This document shows, piece after piece, positions 1-10,827 of a stretch of 34,770 nt of DNA. Position 1 is the stretch's first letter, and every line of letters begins with the position of its first letter. The position numbers and the translations under genes are program-made. Source of the DNA: an uncultured bacterium (lineage in GTDB: Bacteria > Vulcanimicrobiota > CADAWZ01); assembly GCA_949288455.1 (NCBI GenBank), contig CASEKF010000009.1:1-34770 (forward strand), read 5' to 3'. Under the pieces are notes generated by a model. It was not told the origin of the DNA and did no database searches. It saw only the letters and a program-made list of their open reading frames with translations.

Positions 1-80
1 TTTTCTAGTAATTAGCGAAGAGAATAAAAAACCTCCCGAATTCGGGAGGTTTTTTATTCTCTTCGCTAATTACTAGAAAA
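1..80. repeat. Perfect 80-bp palindrome at the window edge
   Basis: Bases 1-40 are the exact reverse complement of bases 41-80, with no mismatch and no spacer. The centre is a normal-looking terminator, but the symmetry continues through about 25 further bases on each side that have no reason to be symmetric. The symmetry runs exactly to base 1, so it may continue past the edge. This could be a real large inverted repeat downstream of the pilin gene, or a fold-back assembly artefact seeded by the terminator hairpin at a contig end. I think the artefact is at least as likely. Confidence 0.95.
26..55. terminator. Bidirectional Rho-independent terminator downstream of the prepilin gene
   Basis: A GC-rich stem (CCTCCCGAA at 32-40 against TTCGGGAGG at 41-49) is flanked by six A on the left and six T on the right, so it would work in both directions. 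It lies about 110 bases past the stop codon of the leftward prepilin gene and is the natural end of that transcript. It forms the core of the larger 80-bp palindrome. Confidence 0.8.
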
Positions 81-93
81 ATCGCATTACTTA

Positions 94-256
94 ATTAGCC
101 AGGTCTTGAGAAGGCGCCGTAATTGTCAATCCTCCGTAAAATTATCCTGTTTTGCAGCTGTTCTAGTTGGCATTAGACAGATCCTCCTTAGGCTCCGTAA
201 TTGTCAAATCCTCCGTAAAATTAGTCTCTTCATCAGATGTTCTAGGAGCCATAAGA
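94..256 (-). repeat. Degenerate tandem duplication of the prepilin 3' end (two copies, about 78 bp offset)
   Basis: Positions 172-256 (coding for the acidic C-terminus of the pilin) and 94-177 (after its stop codon) align at an offset of 78-79 bases. The shared core is CCGTAATTGTCAA followed by TCCTCCGTAAAATTA. Read leftwards, the copy after the stop still resembles the pilin tail: its first half reads MPTRTAAKQDNFTED against MAPRTSDEETNFTED. A one-base deletion then shifts the frame, and the rest reads LTITAPSQDLAN against LTITEPKEDLSNAN. The second copy is now non-coding. Confidence 0.85.
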
Positions 257-672
257 CCTACCTGAGAATCAAAACGAGGCCAACCAACCTTAGTAATACC
301 AGCTTGTCTATGATCGCCAGTAGCACACTGAATTATATAATAATCAGGATTATTTGTAGCATCGTATTTATAAGCAACATTATCTTGTGTCGGACATGTT
401 GGGAAACGCTTCAAATAAGCACTTCCTCCAGATCCTTCAGCGCCTGTATCAGTAAAATTATTACCATTTATAGGATATCTGCCGTTATGATCAGCGGCAT
501 ACATTTCAGCGGCAGTTCCAATATTCTTTAAATTGGAAGAACACGCTGTAAGCTGACCCTGAGCGCGGGCTTTAACAAAGTTAGGAACGAGAATGGCCGC
601 CAAAATAGCGATAATCGCGATAACAATCATGAGCTCGATAAGGGTAAAACCTTTTCTTCCGAGTTTCTTCAT
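163..672 (-). CDS. Type IV prepilin / type II pseudopilin-like protein
   Basis: Major-pilin-like or pseudopilin-like structural subunit of a type IV pilus/type II secretion family machine. The class III leader is short (MKKLGRKG), with expected cleavage between Gly8 and Phe9, Glu at +5 and a hydrophobic helix from about 9 to 31. Then comes the common N-domain pattern with CSSNLKNIGTA and MYAADHNGRYP at about 44-67. Cysteines at 44, 93 and 116 may form a disulphide. The 25-residue acidic tail (about 145-169) corresponds to a duplicated DNA segment. The start is set by AGGAGA nine bases upstream. It lies 105 bases after pilC and has its own strong promoter, as expected for a highly expressed subunit. 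No prepilin peptidase is present in the window. It could be a minor pseudopilin rather than the main pilin. Confidence 0.9.
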   Translation of the reverse strand: MKKLGRKGFTLIELMIVIAIIAILAAILVPNFVKARAQGQLTACSSNLKNIGTAAEMYAADHNGRYPINGNNFTDTGAEGSGGSAYLKRFPTCPTQDNVAYKYDATNNPDYYIIQCATGDHRQAGITKVGWPRFDSQVGLMAPRTSDEETNFTEDLTITEPKEDLSNAN

Positions 673-716
673 TGATTCTTATCTCCTTTCGTAAAAATTT
701 TAAAATAATAATTTCA

Positions 717-732
717 TCGATTTTTCAATCGA
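717..732 (-). other. Stem-loop at the 5' end of the prepilin transcript
   Basis: TCGATT at 717-722 and AATCGA at 727-732 form a 6-bp stem with a 4-base loop. The predicted transcription start of the prepilin promoter is near 734, so the hairpin would begin within a few bases of the mRNA 5' end. 5' hairpins at that place are known to stabilise abundant bacterial mRNAs; applying that here is inference. It could also be a DNA operator site. Confidence 0.45.
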
Positions 733-740
733 CATTATGA

Positions 741-769
741 ATTATAGCACATAAAAATACTAAAATCAA
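741..769 (-). promoter_or_regulatory. Sigma-70 promoter for the prepilin gene
   Basis: On the minus strand, TTGATT (764-769) and a perfect TATAAT (741-746) are separated by exactly 17 bases. The TGC just before the -10 also gives an extended -10 element. The predicted start near 734 leaves a leader of about 60 bases before the prepilin start. It is one of the two best promoters in the window. Confidence 0.7.
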
Positions 770-777
770 GCTTATTT

Positions 778-1995
778 TTACATTTGACCGACGAGCTGAT
801 ACAGAGGCAAAAAGACGGATACCACGATAAAGCCGACTATTCCGCCCATGCCGACTATCATTATAGGCTCAAGCATGGAAGTAAGAGAAGAAAGCATATA
901 ATCTACTTCCGTATCATAGAAATCGGCGATTTTGCCTAGCATGGCGTCCAAATTACCGGTTTCCTCTCCGACCGCGACCATCTGAGTGACCATGGGCGGA
1001 AACATTCCGCTGGCTCCAAGAGGCGCGGCGATGCTTTCGCCTTCCCTAATGCTGTCTCTGACTTTAGCGACGGTATCGGCTATAACCTCGTTGCCGGAAG
1101 CCTTGCCGACTATTTCAAGAGACTGCATAATAGGCACGCCTGAGCTTAAAAGAGTGCCGAGAGTTCTGCAGAACCTGGAAATAGCGACTTTTTTATTGAG
1201 AAGCCCAAATATCGGAACATTGAGCTTCAAGCTGTCGTACTGACGTCTTCCGGTAGGCATCTGAACATATCTGTTAAGCAAAAATGAAAGAACCAGGAAT
1301 AAGATTATAATGGTAATTATAACGCCGACGTTCTGACAGGCTTTGGTTATGCTCATAAGAATTTGAGTTGGCAAAGGCAACGTAAGAGACATTCCCTCAA
1401 ACAAAGTGACGAAAGTGGGAAGAATATAAGTGACAAGGAAAACAACGATACAGATAGCCATGATCAAAATTACGACGGGATAAGTAAGAGCGGCTTTAAC
1501 TTTCTTTTTCAGGCTGTAATCTTTTTCCATAAAGCCGGCCAGACGATCTAAAACCTCGTCTAACACTCCTCCCATTTCTCCCGCTTTGACCATGCTTATG
1601 TATAAAGGAGAAAAAACCGTCTGATGTTTAGCCAAAGCGTTAGAAAGAGTAGAGCCTCCTTCTACGTCTTGCCTCACCTGAATGAGAACCTGCTGCAGCC
1701 TTCTGTCTTCAGTCTGTTCTCCCAAAATATCAAGACAGCGAACCATGGCTAAACCGGCGTTGATCATAGTAGAGAACTGACGGCTAAAAACGGTTAACGC
1801 CTGTTCGTCCACCTTGTTGAAAATAGAAAGAGCCCCTCCTTTAGATTTGGCTACGTCTTTCTTTTCAGTAATGTTAATAACGATGTAACGGTTGTCCTGA
1901 AGTTTCTGGGTAGCCACCTTTAGATTTGGAGCCTCAATTCTGTCTCTCTTCAAATTACCGTTAGCGTCTTTTGCTTCATATACAAAAATTGGCAT
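778..1995 (-). CDS. pilC: Type IV pilus inner-membrane platform protein PilC (GspF family)
   Basis: Polytopic platform protein that couples the PilB/PilT motors to pilin addition and removal. It has 405 residues, normal for the family. The N-terminal segment MPIFVYEAKDANG is typical, followed by two GspF domains: about residues 66-190, with FSRQFSTMINAGLAM, and about 270-395, with FCRTLGTLLSSGVPI. Hydrophobic segments lie near 170-230 and at the C-terminus, which ends GFIVVSVFLPLYQLV. The start is the ATG after GGAGG with 8-base spacing. A longer reading of 419 residues beginning MRGRLNYW has no ribosome site and is rejected. It follows pilB and pilT in the same direction. Confidence 0.95.
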   Translation of the reverse strand: MPIFVYEAKDANGNLKRDRIEAPNLKVATQKLQDNRYIVINITEKKDVAKSKGGALSIFNKVDEQALTVFSRQFSTMINAGLAMVRCLDILGEQTEDRRLQQVLIQVRQDVEGGSTLSNALAKHQTVFSPLYISMVKAGEMGGVLDEVLDRLAGFMEKDYSLKKKVKAALTYPVVILIMAICIVVFLVTYILPTFVTLFEGMSLTLPLPTQILMSITKACQNVGVIITIIILFLVLSFLLNRYVQMPTGRRQYDSLKLNVPIFGLLNKKVAISRFCRTLGTLLSSGVPIMQSLEIVGKASGNEVIADTVAKVRDSIREGESIAAPLGASGMFPPMVTQMVAVGEETGNLDAMLGKIADFYDTEVDYMLSSLTSMLEPIMIVGMGGIVGFIVVSVFLPLYQLVGQM

Positions 1996-2054
1996 ACCTA
2001 AAACCTCCGTTAGCCAATAATTTAACCGGCCACGCACACCGGACCGAAAGATAA

Positions 2055-2079
2055 TAGAGCGGCTAAAAAAACCGCTCTA
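2055..2079 (-). other. Stem-loop with U-rich loop upstream of pilC
   Basis: TAGAGCGG and CCGCTCTA form a perfect 8-bp stem around a 9-base loop. Read leftwards the loop contains seven T. It sits between the 26-residue peptide gene and pilC, about 60 bases before the pilC start. It is not a standard terminator, because the T-run is in the loop rather than after the stem. An RNA processing, stability or attenuation element is possible. Confidence 0.5.
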
Positions 2080-2148
2080 ATGAAGCTGCCGGAATAAATT
2101 GATCAGGCAAAACACTCCGGCGGCTTTCAAAAGAACAGTCGCAGTCTT

Positions 2149-2229
2149 TTATATTTTTGTCAGCTGGGCAACTACTAGAATTCCAAACGGAACAAGCCAC
2201 CACCACATAGATCCAACGAGTTCTACCAT
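2149..2229 (-). CDS. 26-residue single-pass membrane peptide between pilT and pilC
   Basis: I do not recognise this peptide. It reads MVELVGSMWWWLVPFGILVV then AQLTKI: a short N-terminus, a Trp-rich run (WWW at 9-11), a helix long enough for one membrane pass, and a Lys near the end. GGAGGTG lies seven bases before the ATG, one of the best ribosome sites in the window, which is the main reason to call it. A longer reading in another frame over the same stretch (2063-2245) starts inside or next to that ribosome site and has no membrane or other pattern. Its place inside the pilus locus suggests a pilus-motor or platform accessory peptide, but nothing in the sequence proves that. Confidence 0.6.
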   Translation of the reverse strand: MVELVGSMWWWLVPFGILVVAQLTKI

Positions 2230-2338
2230 AGAAGCGCACCTCCATTCTGTATTATGATTAAGACATATGAATTAAAAGTTTATTTACCCGTTTTGAGTAA
2301 AAACCCTAAAGGATTTATCCGTTAAACTTCGCCTTTGC

Positions 2339-3460
2339 TCAGCGTTTTTTGACTCCGCCTCTTGAAACGGCTCCGGAACTTATAGCGTTATCGATCATAC
2401 GGCGCAAATCTTCCGGATGAGACGTACGAGCAATAGCTTCTTCGTCGGTTATCTGTTTAGACGTAAATAAATCCAACAGAGACTGCTCCATAGTTTTCAT
2501 ACCGTATTTTGAACCCGTTTGAATCGTGTTGTATATCTGATGCGTCTTGCCTTCCCTAATAAGAGACTTAACGGCCGGAGTCGCAAGCATTATCTCGACC
2601 GCCGGAACTCTGCCTATGCCGCTTGCATGAGGCACAAGCTGCTGACAAAAAACGGCCTCTAAAACTCCGGCAAGCTGAACTCTGGCCTGTTGCTGCTGGT
2701 AAGGAGGAAATACGTCGACGATTCTGTCGACCGTCTGGGGAGCGTCGGAAGTATGGAGAGTCGCAAAGACAAGATGCCCGGTCTCGGCGGCCACAAGAGC
2801 TCCGCTGATGGTTTCAACGTCTCTCATCTCGCCTACCAAAATAACGTCCGGATCCTCTCTTAAAGTGCCTTTAAGAGCGTTGCTCCAACTTTGCGTATCC
2901 TGCCATAATTCTCTCTGATTAATCATAGCTTTTTTATGAGGATGCACATATTCGATAGGATCCTCTATTGTAATTATATGTACGCACCTTTCGCTGTTTA
3001 TAAGATCCAACATGCAAGCTATGGTGGTAGATTTTCCCGCTCCGGTAGCGCCGGTAACCAAAATCAAACCGTTAGGCTTAGTCACTACGCTTTCCACGAT
3101 TTCCGGAAGGTTAAGCTCGTCTCTGGTAGGAACGTTGCTTGAAATAGCTCTTAGAGAAGCGCCTACGAAACCGCGCTGCCGGAACACGTTGACCCTAAAA
3201 CGTCCAAAACCTCTCACTCCATGAGAACAGTCCAGCTCCCAGGTTTTTTCAAATTTTTCTTTCTGTTTATCATTTAGAATACTGTAAACTAAACGCTTAG
3301 TATCGTCAGGCATCAAACGCGGGAATTCCGTATGAATTAATTTGCCCGACAATCTCAAAACAGGAGGAAGACCGACCGTAAGATGAAGATCCGAAGCTTT
3401 TCTCTCAACCGTAATTCTAAGAAGCTCCTCCATTGTGACTTTTAATGTTGATTCAGCCAT
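2339..3460 (-). CDS. pilT: Type IV pilus retraction ATPase PilT
   Basis: Hexameric cytoplasmic ATPase that powers pilus retraction. 373 residues. The N-terminal PAS-like half starts with the family pattern ASDLHLTVGLPP (22-33). Walker A is GATGAGKS (137-144). The Asp-box region is IITIEDPIEYVH, Walker B is VILVGEMRD with Glu211, and the His-box region is ATLHTSDA (233-240). The C-terminal SLIREGKTHQI (299-309) matches the AIRNLIRE-type motif needed for retraction. The start is supported by AGAGGAA seven bases upstream. It lies 142 bases after pilB. A weak hairpin (2301-2316) just past its stop could reduce readthrough toward pilC. Confidence 0.95.
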   Translation of the reverse strand: MAESTLKVTMEELLRITVERKASDLHLTVGLPPVLRLSGKLIHTEFPRLMPDDTKRLVYSILNDKQKEKFEKTWELDCSHGVRGFGRFRVNVFRQRGFVGASLRAISSNVPTRDELNLPEIVESVVTKPNGLILVTGATGAGKSTTIACMLDLINSERCVHIITIEDPIEYVHPHKKAMINQRELWQDTQSWSNALKGTLREDPDVILVGEMRDVETISGALVAAETGHLVFATLHTSDAPQTVDRIVDVFPPYQQQQARVQLAGVLEAVFCQQLVPHASGIGRVPAVEIMLATPAVKSLIREGKTHQIYNTIQTGSKYGMKTMEQSLLDLFTSKQITDEEAIARTSHPEDLRRMIDNAISSGAVSRGGVKKR

Positions 3461-3602
3461 TATAAAATTCCTCTCTTTATATGTTTAGAACATGAGTTAG
3501 ACGAATTTGGACTATATACGAAAGCCGGACCGCCAATCTGAAGCGAAAAAGCACAACTCGCATACGGCCGGTTTAATAATCAAAATCGCAATATGCCCGC
3601 CG

Positions 3603-5333
3603 CTAAATTTCCTGACCTTCGATAAATACGACTCTAAGACATTCTTCTATGGTGGTAATACCGTCAAGCACTTTTCTTAAGCCGTCGTCAGGCATGGTTT
3701 TCATTCCTTCCTCAATAGCGCACTGGCGGATTTCCGCAGTCGAACATCTCTGAAGAATCAAAGAGCGTATTCTGTCCGAAACGGTAAGAAGTTCATGAAT
3801 TCCGGTTCTGCCTTTATATCCTGACATTTTGCAATTATCGCAGCCGCGCCCTTTATAGAAAGTAATTTCCGAATCGGTATAAGCCGCTAAACCGAATTTT
3901 CTGACCGATTCCATCGGAGGAATATACGCTTCCTTGCAGCTTGGACATATACATCTGGCAAGTCGCTGAGCAAGCACGCATATAACGGACGAGGAGCACA
4001 AGAAAGGCTCTATACCCATTTCAGTAAGACGAGTTATAGCTCCAGGAGCGTCGTTAGTATGCAGCGTAGACAATACGAGGTGTCCCGTAAGAGCCGCCTC
4101 TACCGCGATTTGAGCAGTCTCTCCGTCGCGGATCTCTCCGACCATTATAATATCGGGGTCCTGACGCAGAAAGCTTCTGAGAGCCGCAGCGAAAGTAAGA
4201 CCTGCCTTAACATTCTGCTGAACCTGGTTTATTCCCTGAATCTGGTATTCTACCGGGTCTTCGACAGTCATAATATTAACGCCCTCTTTATTAAGCCTGT
4301 TCAAGATAGAATAAAGGCTGGTAGATTTTCCGCTTCCCGTAGGACCGGTAACGAGAACCATACCGTAAGGCTTATCGACCATATTTTCAAGCTGAGTTTG
4401 AATTTCAGGATAGAATCCCAATTTCCCAAGACCGATCATGACCGAGCCTCTGTCAAGAATTCTCATAACCACTTTTTCGCCATGTACGCATGGAATCGTA
4501 GATACGCGAAGGTCATATTCTTTGCCGTCATGCTTTAAATGAATTTTTCCGTCCTGAGGAACTCTACGCTCGGCAATGTCAAGGTTAGACATAATCTTAA
4601 TACGCGAAACCATAGGAGCCTGAATATGTTTTGGAGGCTGCATAACTTCATGAAGAACTCCGTCGACCCTATATCTGACGCGAACTGATTTTGCGTCCGG
4701 CTCTATATGTATATCGGAAGATTTATCGTTTATAGCCTGAGAAATAATAAGATTGACAACGCGCACGATAGGAGCCTCGTCGACAAGCTGCTTAAGTTCG
4801 TCGAGAGAAACTTCCTCGTCTCTGGCGTCGTCAACCTCCATATCGCCGAAATCAGCCGCGCTTATATCTTTTACCGTTTCTTCCACTTCGGCAAGATCAG
4901 TGGATCCGAACTGCCTGGCGATAGCTTTGGCTATAGACTCTTCCGTAGCTATAAGCGGCTCCACGTCGAATCCCGTGATAAGCCGTATATCGTCTAAGGC
5001 CAAAACGTCCTGAGGATCTACCATGGCAAGCTTAATCTTGTTATCAGACATGCCCACGGGGATAACGTTATATCTCTTAGCCAGATGTTCGGGAACGGAT
5101 CGGGCAAGCTCGACGTCGATCTCCGTTTCGTCGAGATCGATAAAAGGCACGTTAATTTGCATTCCTATTATTTCAGTAATATCCTTATTTGAAACGAACC
5201 CCATATTAACTAAAATCTTTTGAACAGTCTCGCCTGCTTTTGCGGCTTGATCTACGGCTCTCTGAAGCTGACGCTCAGTCACGAAACCGTTTTCTACAAG
5301 AAGCTCCCCTAATTCTTTTCTGCGAAAACTCAT
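3603..5333 (-). CDS. pilB: Type IV pilus assembly ATPase PilB (GspE family)
   Basis: Extension motor of the pilus. 576 residues. The N-terminal GspE/MshEN-type domain (about 1-145) is followed by an acidic linker (150-185). The ATPase core has SSDIHIEP (205-212), Walker A GPTGSGKST (330-338), the Asp box MTVEDPVEYQI, Walker B DIIMVGEIRD (394-403), and the His box STLHTNDAP. A zinc-binding tetracysteine is present (C463/C466 and C498/C501). MshEN domains in this family often bind cyclic di-GMP, so second-messenger control is possible, but I did not verify the binding motif. First gene of the leftward pilus locus; its ribosome site (GGTGA) is weak. Confidence 0.95.
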   Translation of the reverse strand: MSFRRKELGELLVENGFVTERQLQRAVDQAAKAGETVQKILVNMGFVSNKDITEIIGMQINVPFIDLDETEIDVELARSVPEHLAKRYNVIPVGMSDNKIKLAMVDPQDVLALDDIRLITGFDVEPLIATEESIAKAIARQFGSTDLAEVEETVKDISAADFGDMEVDDARDEEVSLDELKQLVDEAPIVRVVNLIISQAINDKSSDIHIEPDAKSVRVRYRVDGVLHEVMQPPKHIQAPMVSRIKIMSNLDIAERRVPQDGKIHLKHDGKEYDLRVSTIPCVHGEKVVMRILDRGSVMIGLGKLGFYPEIQTQLENMVDKPYGMVLVTGPTGSGKSTSLYSILNRLNKEGVNIMTVEDPVEYQIQGINQVQQNVKAGLTFAAALRSFLRQDPDIIMVGEIRDGETAQIAVEAALTGHLVLSTLHTNDAPGAITRLTEMGIEPFLCSSSVICVLAQRLARCICPSCKEAYIPPMESVRKFGLAAYTDSEITFYKGRGCDNCKMSGYKGRTGIHELLTVSDRIRSLILQRCSTAEIRQCAIEEGMKTMPDDGLRKVLDGITTIEECLRVVFIEGQEI

Positions 5334-5700
5334 ACTTTCACCAACTTAATAATTTATTTTTCATAAGCGCGTCAGGCGACGGCTCGACGTACCTTAAACA
5401 AACGGCTTTAAACTCGACAAAGATTGAAAATCGGAATAAAGACGCTTAAAGACGTCAATCTCCCGGAACTTCAAACCGCTCGATTATAAGAGAACAAAAA
5501 ACCAACAAGTCGGCAAGAATAAAATTTTATTTTGCCATATAAAAAACTATAACTCAAAGACATGGAAACGCGTATGATAAGCATTCTATAAATATTTATT
5601 TTTTTCCTTCGTCCGATAAATTTGTTTTAACGCAAGAAAGCGAGCTATAATAAAGACGTCATAACTATCTTTAAACGGCGCGAAGGCGATCGAGGTCTTC
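5334..5700 (-). promoter_or_regulatory. Non-coding region upstream of pilB with candidate promoter and palindrome
   Basis: There is no gene in these 367 bases. On the minus strand a TATAAT (5483-5488) lies 17 bases from a weak -35, GACTTG (5506-5511). Directly upstream of that -35 is an inverted repeat, GGCAA at 5512-5516 and TTGCC at 5532-5536, around the 14-bp perfect palindrome AATAAAATTTTATT (5518-5531). This resembles an operator next to the pilB promoter. A perfect TATAAT also occurs on the plus strand (5646-5651) with TTGTTT 18 bases upstream, but it would read only antisense to yqeG. Confidence 0.4.
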
Positions 5701-6282
5701 TTAATCGCTCTGCAAATCTAATTTAGGACGCTTTGACAGACGACACTCCGACGTTTCGCTAAGCTTTTGTAGAAGGCCTTGCTTCCTGAAGCCGGAAAGC
5801 AAAATTTTTTCAGCCGTTCTCTGAAGTATAGTGGCGTAAAATTCACGTTTGTCCAAAGGGGGAACTAAAATAGTAAGAAAACCCATCCTATTGCCTCCGA
5901 AAACGTCCGTAAAAACTTGATCTCCCACAACAACTACTTTATCGTTAGTTACGTTTAAAATTTTCACGGCGTCGCAAAACGCCTTTCTGCGAGGCTTTAT
6001 AGCCTTAAAAACAAAAGGTATTCCAAGCATATCGCTAAAAAAGCGCACTCGGCCTCTAAGCAGACAATTTGATACGATACAAAGCTTAAATTCTAATTTT
6101 TGAGCGTTCTTTATCCAACGTTTGACAGATTCGCTCATATTTTTAGATCTCCAGCCGACAAGAGTATTGTCTAAATCTAAAATAATAGCTTTAAACCCTA
6201 AAGCCTTAAGGCGCTCTAAATGAATATCCTCGACCTTCTCCATAAAAAAGTCGGGCAAAAACATCTTCAAATCAAGAAACAT
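5701..6282 (-). CDS. yqeG: YqeG-family HAD phosphatase (phosphatidylglycerophosphatase-like)
   Basis: HAD superfamily IIIA hydrolase. Motif I is ILDLDNTLVGW (about 34-44), motif II is the serine in VSNCL, and there is a downstream Lys in KPRRKAF and motif IV VVVGDQVFTDVFGGN. The family includes yeast Gep4, which dephosphorylates phosphatidylglycerophosphate. A lipid phosphatase role is plausible but not proven for YqeG proteins. 193 residues; about 25 charged C-terminal residues extend past the usual end. It starts two bases after udk and is the last gene of the recO-ruvX-udk-yqeG operon. I see no convincing terminator after it. Confidence 0.85.
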   Translation of the reverse strand: MFLDLKMFLPDFFMEKVEDIHLERLKALGFKAIILDLDNTLVGWRSKNMSESVKRWIKNAQKLEFKLCIVSNCLLRGRVRFFSDMLGIPFVFKAIKPRRKAFCDAVKILNVTNDKVVVVGDQVFTDVFGGNRMGFLTILVPPLDKREFYATILQRTAEKILLSGFRKQGLLQKLSETSECRLSKRPKLDLQSD

Positions 6283-8284: not shown

Positions 8285-9541
8285 TCAAACTCCGGACAAA
8301 GATTCCCTAACTATAGCGACTCCGGCGCTGGCTCCAATCCTAGAAGCTCCGGCTTCTATCATTTCCTTTGCTTTCCGGTAATCCCTTATGCCTCCGGACG
8401 CTTTAACGCCCATAGAATCTCCGACTGCCTTTCTCATAAGAGCGACGTCCGCTGCTTCCGCTCCTCCGGAAGAAAAACCGGTTGAAGTTTTTACGTAATC
8501 GGCTCCGGCTTCTTTACTCAGCTCGCAAGCTTTTACTTTTTCGTCGTCCGTAAGCAAACAAGTCTCGATAATAACTTTTACGAGATGTCCGCCTGCGGCT
8601 AAAACTACGGCCTCTATATCCTTTTTAACGACGTCGTAATCCTTAGCTTTTAAAGCCCCTATATTTATAACCATATCTATTTCGCTTGCTCCGTCGGCTA
8701 CGGCGTCCCTGGTTTCGGCAGCCTTCGTAAAGGAAGAAGAAGCTCCCAGAGGAAATCCGACTACGGAACATACCTTTACCGGAGAACCAAGCAGTTCTTT
8801 ATAAGCGGTTTTAACGTTAAAAGGATTTACGCACACCGAGGCGAATCCATATTCCCTGGCCTCAGCACACAATTTTATAATCTGTTCTTTAGACGCGTCG
8901 GGCTTAAGGAGAGTATGATCTATATAAGAAGCGATAGGAGCAAAATTCTTATCCGACTCCGCGCAGTCCGACTTCTCGACTATGCCGTAAGTATCCGCTC
9001 CAACTCCGGCCGAATTAGCTTCGTCGGCGTCTATATGCATTTCCAAAGCGAAAGTTTTTCTAACTCTTACGTAGCATCGGTCAAAAACTAATTTTCTCGC
9101 GCCTTCTATGGCGACTTTTGCCCAGTCCCCGTTTTTGAATCCCCAAAGATCGGCTATTTCTTCGGTAAGATGAATATGACGCTGAGCTATGATCAACCCG
9201 TTTACCGTGACAGAACCGCATGGCCCTACGAGAGTAACGGAAGCCGCTCCCTCTAAGTCGCCCGAATCGCGTAAAGGAACGTCTTTAAGGCCTAACACAA
9301 AGGTGTCGGATTTAGAGACTTCTATCTGAGTATATCTGCGCAAAGGCCCGATAATCCTTACTTTAGGAAATTTACCCTTTGGACCTACGACTTCTACGGT
9401 CTGTTCCGAAGCGAACTCTCCGGGCTGAATCAAATCGGCTTTCTTCGTAAGCTCAGATCCTTTGCCGAACAGAATGTCCATATGTTCTCTCGTAAGATGA
9501 AGATGACGGGCTGAAGAATTAATTTTTACTTTTCTGACCAC
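8285..9541 (-). CDS. PduL-DeoC fusion: phosphate propanoyl/acetyltransferase joined to deoxyribose-phosphate aldolase
   Basis: Two enzymes in one 418-residue reading frame. Residues 1-190 are a PduL-type phosphotransacylase (acyl-CoA + Pi to acyl-phosphate + CoA). Its histidine pairs are both present, SARHLHL (His13, His15) and QRHIHL (His122, His124), plus the His in [10 protein letters not shown] (His169), matching the metal ligands of PduL. A linker follows (191-203), then DeoC (204-418): [18 protein letters not shown] (Asp289), [12 protein letters not shown] (Schiff-base Lys351) and VKASGGIRD (Lys380). DeoC splits deoxyribose 5-phosphate into acetaldehyde and glyceraldehyde 3-phosphate. 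The GTG start is set by AGAGGTG six bases upstream. It starts directly at the PduL core, so no N-terminal microcompartment targeting peptide is seen, and no shell genes are nearby. Confidence 0.9.
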
Positions 9542-9615
9542 AGAAAACACCTCTTTATTAAATTATTGCGCTCCTAATAATAAAGATCAGGAGTATTGAA
9601 GGTCTTATGTCAAAA

Positions 9616-10827
9616 TTAAATACATCTCGGAGGAGTTTGTCCTCTTTCAAGCCAATACATCAATTTAGCTCCATGAAGCCTAACCGACTGAACCGGATCT
9701 TGAAGCATAGCCTTTATATAAGGAACTACTCGAGCGTCTTGAAAATGAGCCAACGCATAAGCCGCAAGAGTTCGTATTTTATACGATTTGTCAGACATTA
9801 CAAAAGTCAGAGGTTTGAAAGCTCTCTCGTCGGTTATCGTCTGAAAAGCTCTAATAGCCGCTTCTTTTACGTTCTCATTTTTTGAAAATAAAGCCTCTAC
9901 CAAAGCCGGAACGGCTCTCTTGGAGCCTATTTCCTCAAGCACAAAAATAGCGTAAGAACTTCGCTCCGGATCCAAAAAAGCTTTAGACTCCAGAATTTTA
10001 TCGACCACATAGTCGCACTTCATTTTAGCGAGGGCCATCGAAGCGTAATGAGCTACTATTTCGTTGGAATCTTCGAGTAAAGAGATTAAATCGTTCACGG
10101 CCTCAAGCTTCCCTATAGCCCCTAAAGCGAGAGCAGCCTGCATTTTCAAAAAAGGAGAACGCGTTTTACGAACAATTCTCATAAGCGGAGCGAAAGCTCT
10201 TTCGTCAGGGATTCCCTGTAAAGCAATAGCCGCAAAATAAGCCCGCTTAGGACTTTTCAAAGCTTCGATCAACTCCGGAGCGATTGAAGAACAGCCTATC
10301 CTTCCTAAAATATCGGCCGATTCCTCCCTGACGTATTTCTTTTCAGAAATATCCATCAGTCTGTCAAAAGCGTTCCTATCCCATCCGCCCTCTCTCATCT
10401 TAGAATAAAAAGCTGAAATTTTTTCTTTATCTTCGGCAAAAGACGTATCTTGACTCATACTCAGCTTGAGAGATCTATAATAGTAATCCAAAGAATCCTG
10501 TTTGCCGTTTGCCAAACGTCTGCGAGCCCTCAGCAAAGGATTAGCCGTTCCCTTAATCTTGCCGATTTTTTCAACTGAAAAATCTTTTCCCCATCTGCCG
10601 CCGATATTCTCTATTATTACGTTGCCAAGATATGACCCTATTACTCCGGCCGCAATAAAATAATGGTTCCTTCTCAATTTAAAAAACAAAGAAAGAAGAT
10701 CGTCCGAAACAACAAGCGACTCCTCCGAATAATCGATATTAATCCCAAACTTTCTTTCCACCATCATTAAAAAACGTTCGGAAGAATGATTTAAAGAAGC
10801 CAGGGTTTCAGCGTCTGCCCGCGCCAT
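9616..10827 (-). CDS. HEAT/PBS-lyase-type repeat protein with an N-terminal DUF3806-like domain
   Basis: 403 residues, function unknown. The C-terminal half (about 165-395) is a run of roughly seven HEAT/armadillo-type helical repeats, for example EESADILGRIGCSSIAPELI, AAIALQGIPDERAFAPLMRI, MQAALALGAIGKLEAVNDLI and EEIGSKRAVPALVEALFS. Such scaffolds usually bind other proteins. The N-terminal 120 residues are different: AAGVIGSYLGNVIIENIGGRW (about 79-99, one residue trimmed here) resembles the GxYLGE...GGxW pattern of DUF3806-type domains. No signal peptide or membrane segment, so cytoplasmic. GGGAGGA precedes the ATG. It stands alone, 74 bases upstream of the PduL-DeoC gene. Confidence 0.75.
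   Translation of the reverse strand: MARADAETLASLNHSSERFLMMVERKFGINIDYSEESLVVSDDLLSLFFKLRRNHYFIAAGVIGSYLGNVIIENIGGRWGKDFSVEKIGKIKGTANPLLRARRRLANGKQDSLDYYYRSLKLSMSQDTSFAEDKEKISAFYSKMREGGWDRNAFDRLMDISEKKYVREESADILGRIGCSSIAPELIEALKSPKRAYFAAIALQGIPDERAFAPLMRIVRKTRSPFLKMQAALALGAIGKLEAVNDLISLLEDSNEIVAHYASMALAKMKCDYVVDKILESKAFLDPERSSYAIFVLEEIGSKRAVPALVEALFSKNENVKEAAIRAFQTITDERAFKPLTFVMSDKSYKIRTLAAYALAHFQDARVVPYIKAMLQDPVQSVRLHGAKLMYWLERGQTPPRCI

What the first reader, a model, noticed from the sequence alone, without database searches (positions are those of the whole stretch)
2149..2229. 26-residue Trp-rich membrane peptide inside the pilus locus
An excellent ribosome site (GGAGGTG, seven bases) precedes a peptide with one membrane segment and a WWW run, lying between pilT and pilC. 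It is too short for standard gene callers. Single-pass micropeptides often regulate membrane machines, so a role with the PilC platform or the motors is a reasonable guess.
Basis: partly seen in the sequence, partly recalled or inferred. Interest (0 to 1): 0.52.

Follow-up and report, generated by a model that had tools for sequence, protein, structure and literature searches.

The report
Conserved tiny partner of pilus platform
Just upstream of the gene for the membrane base of a bacterial grappling-hook machine (the type IV pilus) sits a gene for a 26-amino-acid membrane peptide, which is kept at that place across much of one bacterial phylum and is therefore probably an overlooked small part of the machine.

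Summary
The peptide is real. It is encoded at 2149-2229, minus strand (ATG, GGAGGTG seven bases upstream). An ungapped peptide family with one invariant Trp and a fixed 16-residue tail after it occurs in 40 of 149 genomes searched in the phylum. In all 40 it is encoded directly upstream, same strand, of one PilC type (PilC1); 40 of the 41 genomes in which I found PilC1 have it. The link is to pilC, not pilT: in three genomes a second pilC lies between pilT and the peptide, which still directly precedes pilC1; in one no pilT lies there. PilC2 paralogues and other PilC-family loci carry none. Substitutions are those of a translated gene: pN/pS 0.31 in frame against 0.73 and 3.5 out of frame, while the 30 nt downstream are at chance. 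It was not found beside pilC in the sampled genomes of other phyla. Best reading: a single-pass accessory subunit of the PilC1 platform. Binding and function are inferred; AlphaFold gave no confident placement, and distance comparison did not separate PilC from PilT. Main rival: a cis-acting leader peptide for pilC.

The parts
2149..2229 (-). micropeptide gene, 26 codons, MVELVGSMWWWLVPFGILVVAQLTKI, stop TAA
   Evidence: conserved, coding-type substitution, one hydrophobic segment
2237..2243 (-). Shine-Dalgarno GGAGGTG, 7-nt spacer to ATG
   Evidence: GGAGG-containing site before 20 of 41 copies, weaker purine-rich site before 19, none scored before 2
778..1995 (-). pilC1, platform protein (ATG 1995; 405 aa), the constant downstream neighbour
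   Evidence: PF00482, E 4.3e-69; own SD AACGGAGG conserved in the 4 family members aligned
1996..2148 (-). 153-nt spacer between peptide stop and pilC1 start; not conserved except for the pilC SD region
2055..2079 (-). weak terminator-like hairpin in the spacer (10 pairs, poor T tail)
   Evidence: 3 such sites found in 1-6000 against 6.2 expected by shuffling, so probably nothing
2339..3460 (-). pilT, retraction-type ATPase, upstream neighbour
   Evidence: PF00437
3603..5333 (-). pilB, assembly ATPase with MshEN domain
   Evidence: PF00437 and PF05157
163..672 (-). type IV pilin-like protein with N-methylation motif
   Evidence: PF07963

Best explanation
The gene makes a 19-26-residue single-pass inner-membrane peptide that is an accessory subunit of the type IV pilus platform protein PilC1. 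Shown: it is translated in this frame over evolutionary time, it has one short hydrophobic segment opening with Trp and a short polar tail, and it is always encoded immediately upstream of pilC1 on the same strand. Inferred: it is inserted in the membrane just before PilC1 is made from the same transcript, packs against the membrane segments of the PilC1 oligomer, and stabilises or tunes it, as CydX does for cytochrome bd or AcrZ for AcrB. The orientation (short N-terminus outside, Thr-Lys-Ile end inside) is a guess from charge: the N-tail carries net 0 or -1 in all 41 copies, the C-tail net +1 or +2 in 25 of 41.
For: 40 genomes of 14 families, 41 copies, ungapped, one Trp invariant, C-terminus at fixed distance. 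The A1 profile was built from peptides of 26 of these genomes; it found 13 more, each just upstream of a PilC1, and G013 was found by reading its locus. 40 of 41 genomes with PilC1 have it. It follows pilC1 and not pilT. It is specific to PilC1: the window's genome has six PF00482 proteins but a single peptide match at E <= 1, and the 14 PilC2 sequences, none with the peptide, form one clade (support 99). The peptide sequence itself is selected: pN/pS 0.31, codon-position identity 0.52/0.75/0.36. G043 and G060 encode the same core with 16 of 57 bases different.
Against: No direct evidence of binding. AlphaFold on a peptide-spacer-PilC1 read-through chain of L043 gave the peptide a helix at pLDDT about 38-40 and no trusted placement. 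Mirror-tree partial correlations are equal for PilC and PilT (0.24 and 0.24). One PilC1-like gene, G046:C501 (64% identical, long branch), has no peptide upstream. PilC of other phyla works without it. Its constant place upstream of pilC is also what a cis-acting leader would show.
Confidence: 0.6

Rival explanations
1. Cis-acting leader: translating the short ORF controls pilC1 translation (coupling or ribosome arrest sensing membrane insertion), and the released peptide does nothing.
For: Always directly upstream of pilC1; gap of 20 nt or less in many copies (for example 13, 15, 16, 17, 18, 19 nt), enough for translational coupling. Conserved Trp, often Pro, and a fixed distance to the stop recall arrest peptides such as TnaC and SecM (recalled resemblance only).
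Against: Spacer length runs from 13 to 239 nt and its first 30 nt are at chance identity (0.259 against 0.261), so there is no conserved attenuator; the shortest gaps leave no room for one. Simple coupling would not need a conserved amino-acid sequence. Conservative Ile/Leu/Val/Met exchanges along the whole segment look like membrane packing. G062 carries two tandem copies.
Confidence: 0.2
2. A membrane peptide that serves another partner (pilin, PilB, PilT or the lipid environment) and merely sits in the pilus operon.
For: Short hydrophobic segment with Trp at one end, faintly TatA-like (best E 0.093 in 19 members scanned).
Against: Stays with pilC1 where pilT is separated or not adjacent; no other gene was as constant a neighbour in the loci read.
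Confidence: 0.13
3. Independent small hydrophobic toxin or antimicrobial peptide.
For: Size and hydrophobicity.
Against: Strict linkage to one housekeeping gene in 40 of 40 genomes, one locus per genome (tandem only in G062), purifying selection.
Confidence: 0.03
4. Chance ORF.
For: 43 of 3000 shuffles give something similar.
Against: Conservation and codon pattern.
Confidence: 0.01

Closest known systems
CydX (37 aa, cytochrome bd oxidase subunit)
   Same: Small membrane protein encoded beside its partner and coupled to one allele of it (cydA Q-long); few conserved residues; many homologues unannotated (abstract and outline of PMC4325964).
   Different: Different partner and sequence; CydX function was shown by complementation, here there is no experiment; lineage differs.
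AcrZ (small protein on AcrB)
   Same: Transmembrane small protein proposed to tune a large inner-membrane machine together with lipid (abstract of PMC7267776).
   Different: Longer (recalled), other partner, no sequence link tested.
KdpF and SpoVM
   Same: Single-segment membrane micropeptides of about this size (recalled).
   Different: Partners and sequences differ (recalled, not tested).
TatA N-terminal helix
   Same: Short segment starting near Trp and ending with Gly then Lys (recalled); weak profile score, E 0.093 at best.
   Different: No amphipathic helix or tail follows; the score is at chance level; not a TatA.
GspF/PilC platform as known (PulF trimer)
   Same: The presumed partner family; TMS1 and TMS3 form a central bundle with TMS2 peripheral (passages of PMC10790770).
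   Different: No micropeptide subunit is mentioned in the passages seen.

Membership tests
Operon-encoded single-pass small-protein subunit (CydX/AcrZ kind) | under 50 residues, one membrane segment | tested here: met
   19-26 aa in 41 copies; mean hydropathy of the 14-residue core 1.55-3.35
Operon-encoded single-pass small-protein subunit (CydX/AcrZ kind) | conserved together with one partner gene | tested here: met
   40 of 41 PilC1 genomes; always directly upstream
Operon-encoded single-pass small-protein subunit (CydX/AcrZ kind) | physical contact with the partner | tested here: inconclusive
   read-through AlphaFold chain, peptide pLDDT about 40
Operon-encoded single-pass small-protein subunit (CydX/AcrZ kind) | partner function impaired without it | not testable with these tools
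   needs a mutant
Cis-acting leader peptide or attenuator | conserved RNA structure or spacer to the regulated gene | tested here: not met
   downstream 30 nt at chance identity, gap 13-239 nt; no Rfam match overlaps it
Cis-acting leader peptide or attenuator | programmed ribosome arrest | not testable with these tools
   needs ribosome profiling or toeprinting
TatA/TatE | significant match to TatA profiles | tested here: not met
   best E 0.093 in 19 members scanned; no Pfam TatA match listed
Any Pfam, NCBIfam or PDB family | significant sequence match | tested here: not met
   best Pfam E 0.14 (FixQ, 1 of 19 members); no PDB match at E <= 10

The most novel reading that the evidence does not exclude
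The peptide is a constitutive transmembrane subunit of the PilC1 platform, arisen once in the Eremiobacterota lineage, that sets the oligomer, ion leak or motor response of PilC1 and marks it off from its paralogue PilC2: the first micropeptide subunit of a type IV pilus machine.
Probability: 0.35. Interest if true: 0.75.

Novelty: new variant of a known kind. Interest (0 to 1): 0.6.

Why it matters
Type IV pilus machines are treated as having a settled parts list. A conserved 19-26-residue membrane peptide tied to one platform paralogue over 14 families would add a part that gene callers are likely to miss. It would also give a handle on an open question, how the PilC platform couples the motor to the filament. 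It shows that very short genes can be established by synteny plus codon statistics.

Tried and rejected
Kept as null or contrary results: mirror-tree comparison over 37 genomes gave partial rank correlations of 0.24 (peptide with PilC given PilT) and 0.24 (peptide with PilT given PilC), so it does not favour PilC. The AlphaFold read-through fold (446 residues, 28 rows, 3 of them with the peptide) gave no trusted peptide placement. PilC1-specific residues cluster in TM1 (for example 175, 176, 178, 182, 183 in the G003 sequence), but TM1 lies in the central bundle of the related PulF trimer, so this is not evidence of a peptide site.

Rejected: a TatA relation; a Trp attenuator (no conserved spacer, and family f14 has only one or two Trp); the overlapping 60-aa frame 2063-2245, which the conserved frame excludes. 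Wider search outside the phylum: 8 of 41 genomes of other lineages had only E 0.118-0.89. One of them, G154, sits in a 33-aa frame; I printed part of one strand of its locus, did not see the frame there and did not pursue it. Further: 3 of 43 with E 0.002-0.006, all inside frames of 501-727 aa; 0 of 198; 1 of 246 at 0.008 in a 374-aa frame; 1 of 299 at 8.4e-4 in a 50-aa frame whose 3-kb locus shows a MetK-like frame (recalled motif) and no pilC that I recognised; 0 of 188. Some genomes recur between these calls. The tool warns that an empty answer without a positive control shows little; a near-identical profile (A1) does ring in the home phylum.

Literature: the listings of seven searches were seen; none listed a micropeptide of the type IV pilus platform. 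That is absence from those searches of open-licence papers only. The weak terminator and the promoter scan were not informative.

Full report
Observation. The minus-strand ORF 2149-2229 encodes MVELVGSMWWWLVPFGILVVAQLTKI, with GGAGGTG seven bases before its ATG. Around it on the same strand lie pilB (3603-5333), pilT (2339-3460), pilC (ATG 1995) and a pilin-like gene (163-672). Among 3000 dinucleotide shuffles of the 343-nt pilT-pilC interval, 43 gave an SD-preceded hydrophobic ORF of 18-60 aa, so one genome alone would be only suggestive.

Conservation. The phylum is Eremiobacterota by the record titles of several relatives (for example the contig of same-phylum genome G018 has the same length as one titled Candidatus Eremiobacterota ACE_ERE1). 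Among the 30 pilT loci (L001-L030, the window's own included), 26 carry the peptide between pilT and pilC. The four without it there (L022, L023, L024, L026) have a 10-30-nt interval. A profile from 23 peptides (A1, from 26 genomes) was run over 149 genomes of the phylum. It matched 39 genomes at E <= 0.01. Thirteen more had only E 0.14-0.87, mostly inside long frames, and were dropped. G013 was missed by the profile and found by reading its locus. Total: 40 genomes, 14 families, 41 copies. The 13 profile finds that were not in the building set are a fair test: each lies directly upstream of pilC.

Linkage. In the 41 copies the next gene downstream on the same strand is PilC1 (59% or more identical to the window's PilC, except 53% for the 121-residue stub at a contig end in G059); the gap is 13-239 nt, and 114 nt for the first tandem copy of G062, which has the second copy in between. 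For G009 the PilC start lay before the aligned part and the extrapolated start does not read cleanly, so its gap of 32 nt is unsure. In G006, G010 and G013 the order is pilT, a divergent pilC (43-52%), peptide, pilC1 (65-68%); in G009 it is pilB, peptide, pilC1 without pilT between. So the peptide follows pilC1. PilC1 was found in 40 genomes, plus the G059 stub: 41. Forty have the peptide. The exception is G046, whose 64% PilC stands downstream of what looks like another gene's end and has a long branch. G016 has only a contig-end divergent pilC there and was not counted.

Paralogues. The tree of 104 PilC sequences puts the 14 PilC2-type sequences, peptide-free and including the divergent pilC of G006, G010 and G013, in one clade (support 99), and the f9 and f16 PilCs outside. 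Whether PilC1 is one clade is open: the peptide label needs two changes on the drawn tree. A scan of 260 nt upstream of 67 peptide-free pilC genes, in and outside the phylum and including G046, printed no SD-preceded hydrophobic small ORF (inputs; the filter was not run on peptide-bearing loci as a control). The window's genome has six PF00482 proteins but one peptide match.

Coding. Over within-family pairs of the 19-codon core, pN/pS is 0.31 in frame, 0.73 and 3.5 in the two shifted frames. Identity by codon position is 0.52, 0.75, 0.36. The 30 nt after the stop have 0.259 against 0.261 by composition. All three stop codons are used (18 TAA, 13 TAG, 10 TGA). Pairs are not independent, so no p-value is claimed. 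In the four genomes of the window's family the peptide with its SD and the pilC SD with its start form the conserved blocks. An SD holding GGAGG precedes 20 of 41 copies, a weaker one 19, none scored 2.

Nature. The core is hydrophobic in all 41 copies, opens with one to three Trp, often has Pro, and mostly ends Gly-x-x-Thr/Ser-Lys-Ile-like. No significant Pfam, NCBIfam or PDB match (the two family scans covered the 19 of 25 members that have at least 20 aa). No Rfam match overlaps it in window 1-6000.

Mechanism. The best-supported reading is an accessory membrane subunit of PilC1, made just before it. Shown: translation in this frame over evolution, membrane-type sequence, exclusive linkage to pilC1. 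Inferred: insertion, orientation, contact, effect. AlphaFold did not place it, and co-divergence does not separate PilC from PilT. The leader-peptide rival keeps a fifth of the weight because position alone cannot exclude it; the lack of any conserved spacer, the conserved product and the tandem copies in G062 speak against it.

Range. Not found beside pilC outside the phylum. Of the 88 loci with pilT and pilC adjacent, the 44 that lie outside the phylum by title have intervals of -46 to 94 nt, and the profile's best score in the outside loci was 8.8 bits. Genome-wide searches of other phyla gave only isolated weak matches, and many phyla were not sampled.

Known relatives. By kind it resembles CydX and AcrZ (abstracts and outlines seen); by sequence it belongs to no family tested. 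In the literature searches listed under Tried and rejected I saw no micropeptide of the type IV pilus platform; the PulF paper was seen in passages only.

Noticed in passing
window 1-80: Perfect 80-nt palindrome (two 40-nt arms, no loop) exactly at the contig's first base: a bidirectional terminator beyond the pilin gene or an assembly end artefact.
   Followed up: no
L141 1271-3791; L142 2384-5127; L143 2095-4752: In families f4 and f8 a PilC2-type gene sits between pilT and the peptide-pilC1 pair; in the other genomes whose PilC2 was fetched it lies on a different contig from this locus.
   Followed up: partly
L144 2120-2281: G062 carries two tandem copies of the peptide gene; 13 of 57 core bases differ, 12 of them counted as synonymous.
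   Followed up: partly
L190 369-1586: G046 has a PilC1-like gene (64%) on a long branch without peptide; upstream is the end of another frame.
   Followed up: partly
L167 4417-5656: pilC1 of G005 is split in two overlapping pieces in different frames: broken gene or assembly error.
   Followed up: no
window 8285-9550: One 421-aa frame joins a phosphate propanoyltransferase (PTAC) domain to a DeoC-type aldolase domain: a fusion worth a second look.
   Followed up: no
window 9616-10827: 403-aa protein with HEAT repeats.
   Followed up: no
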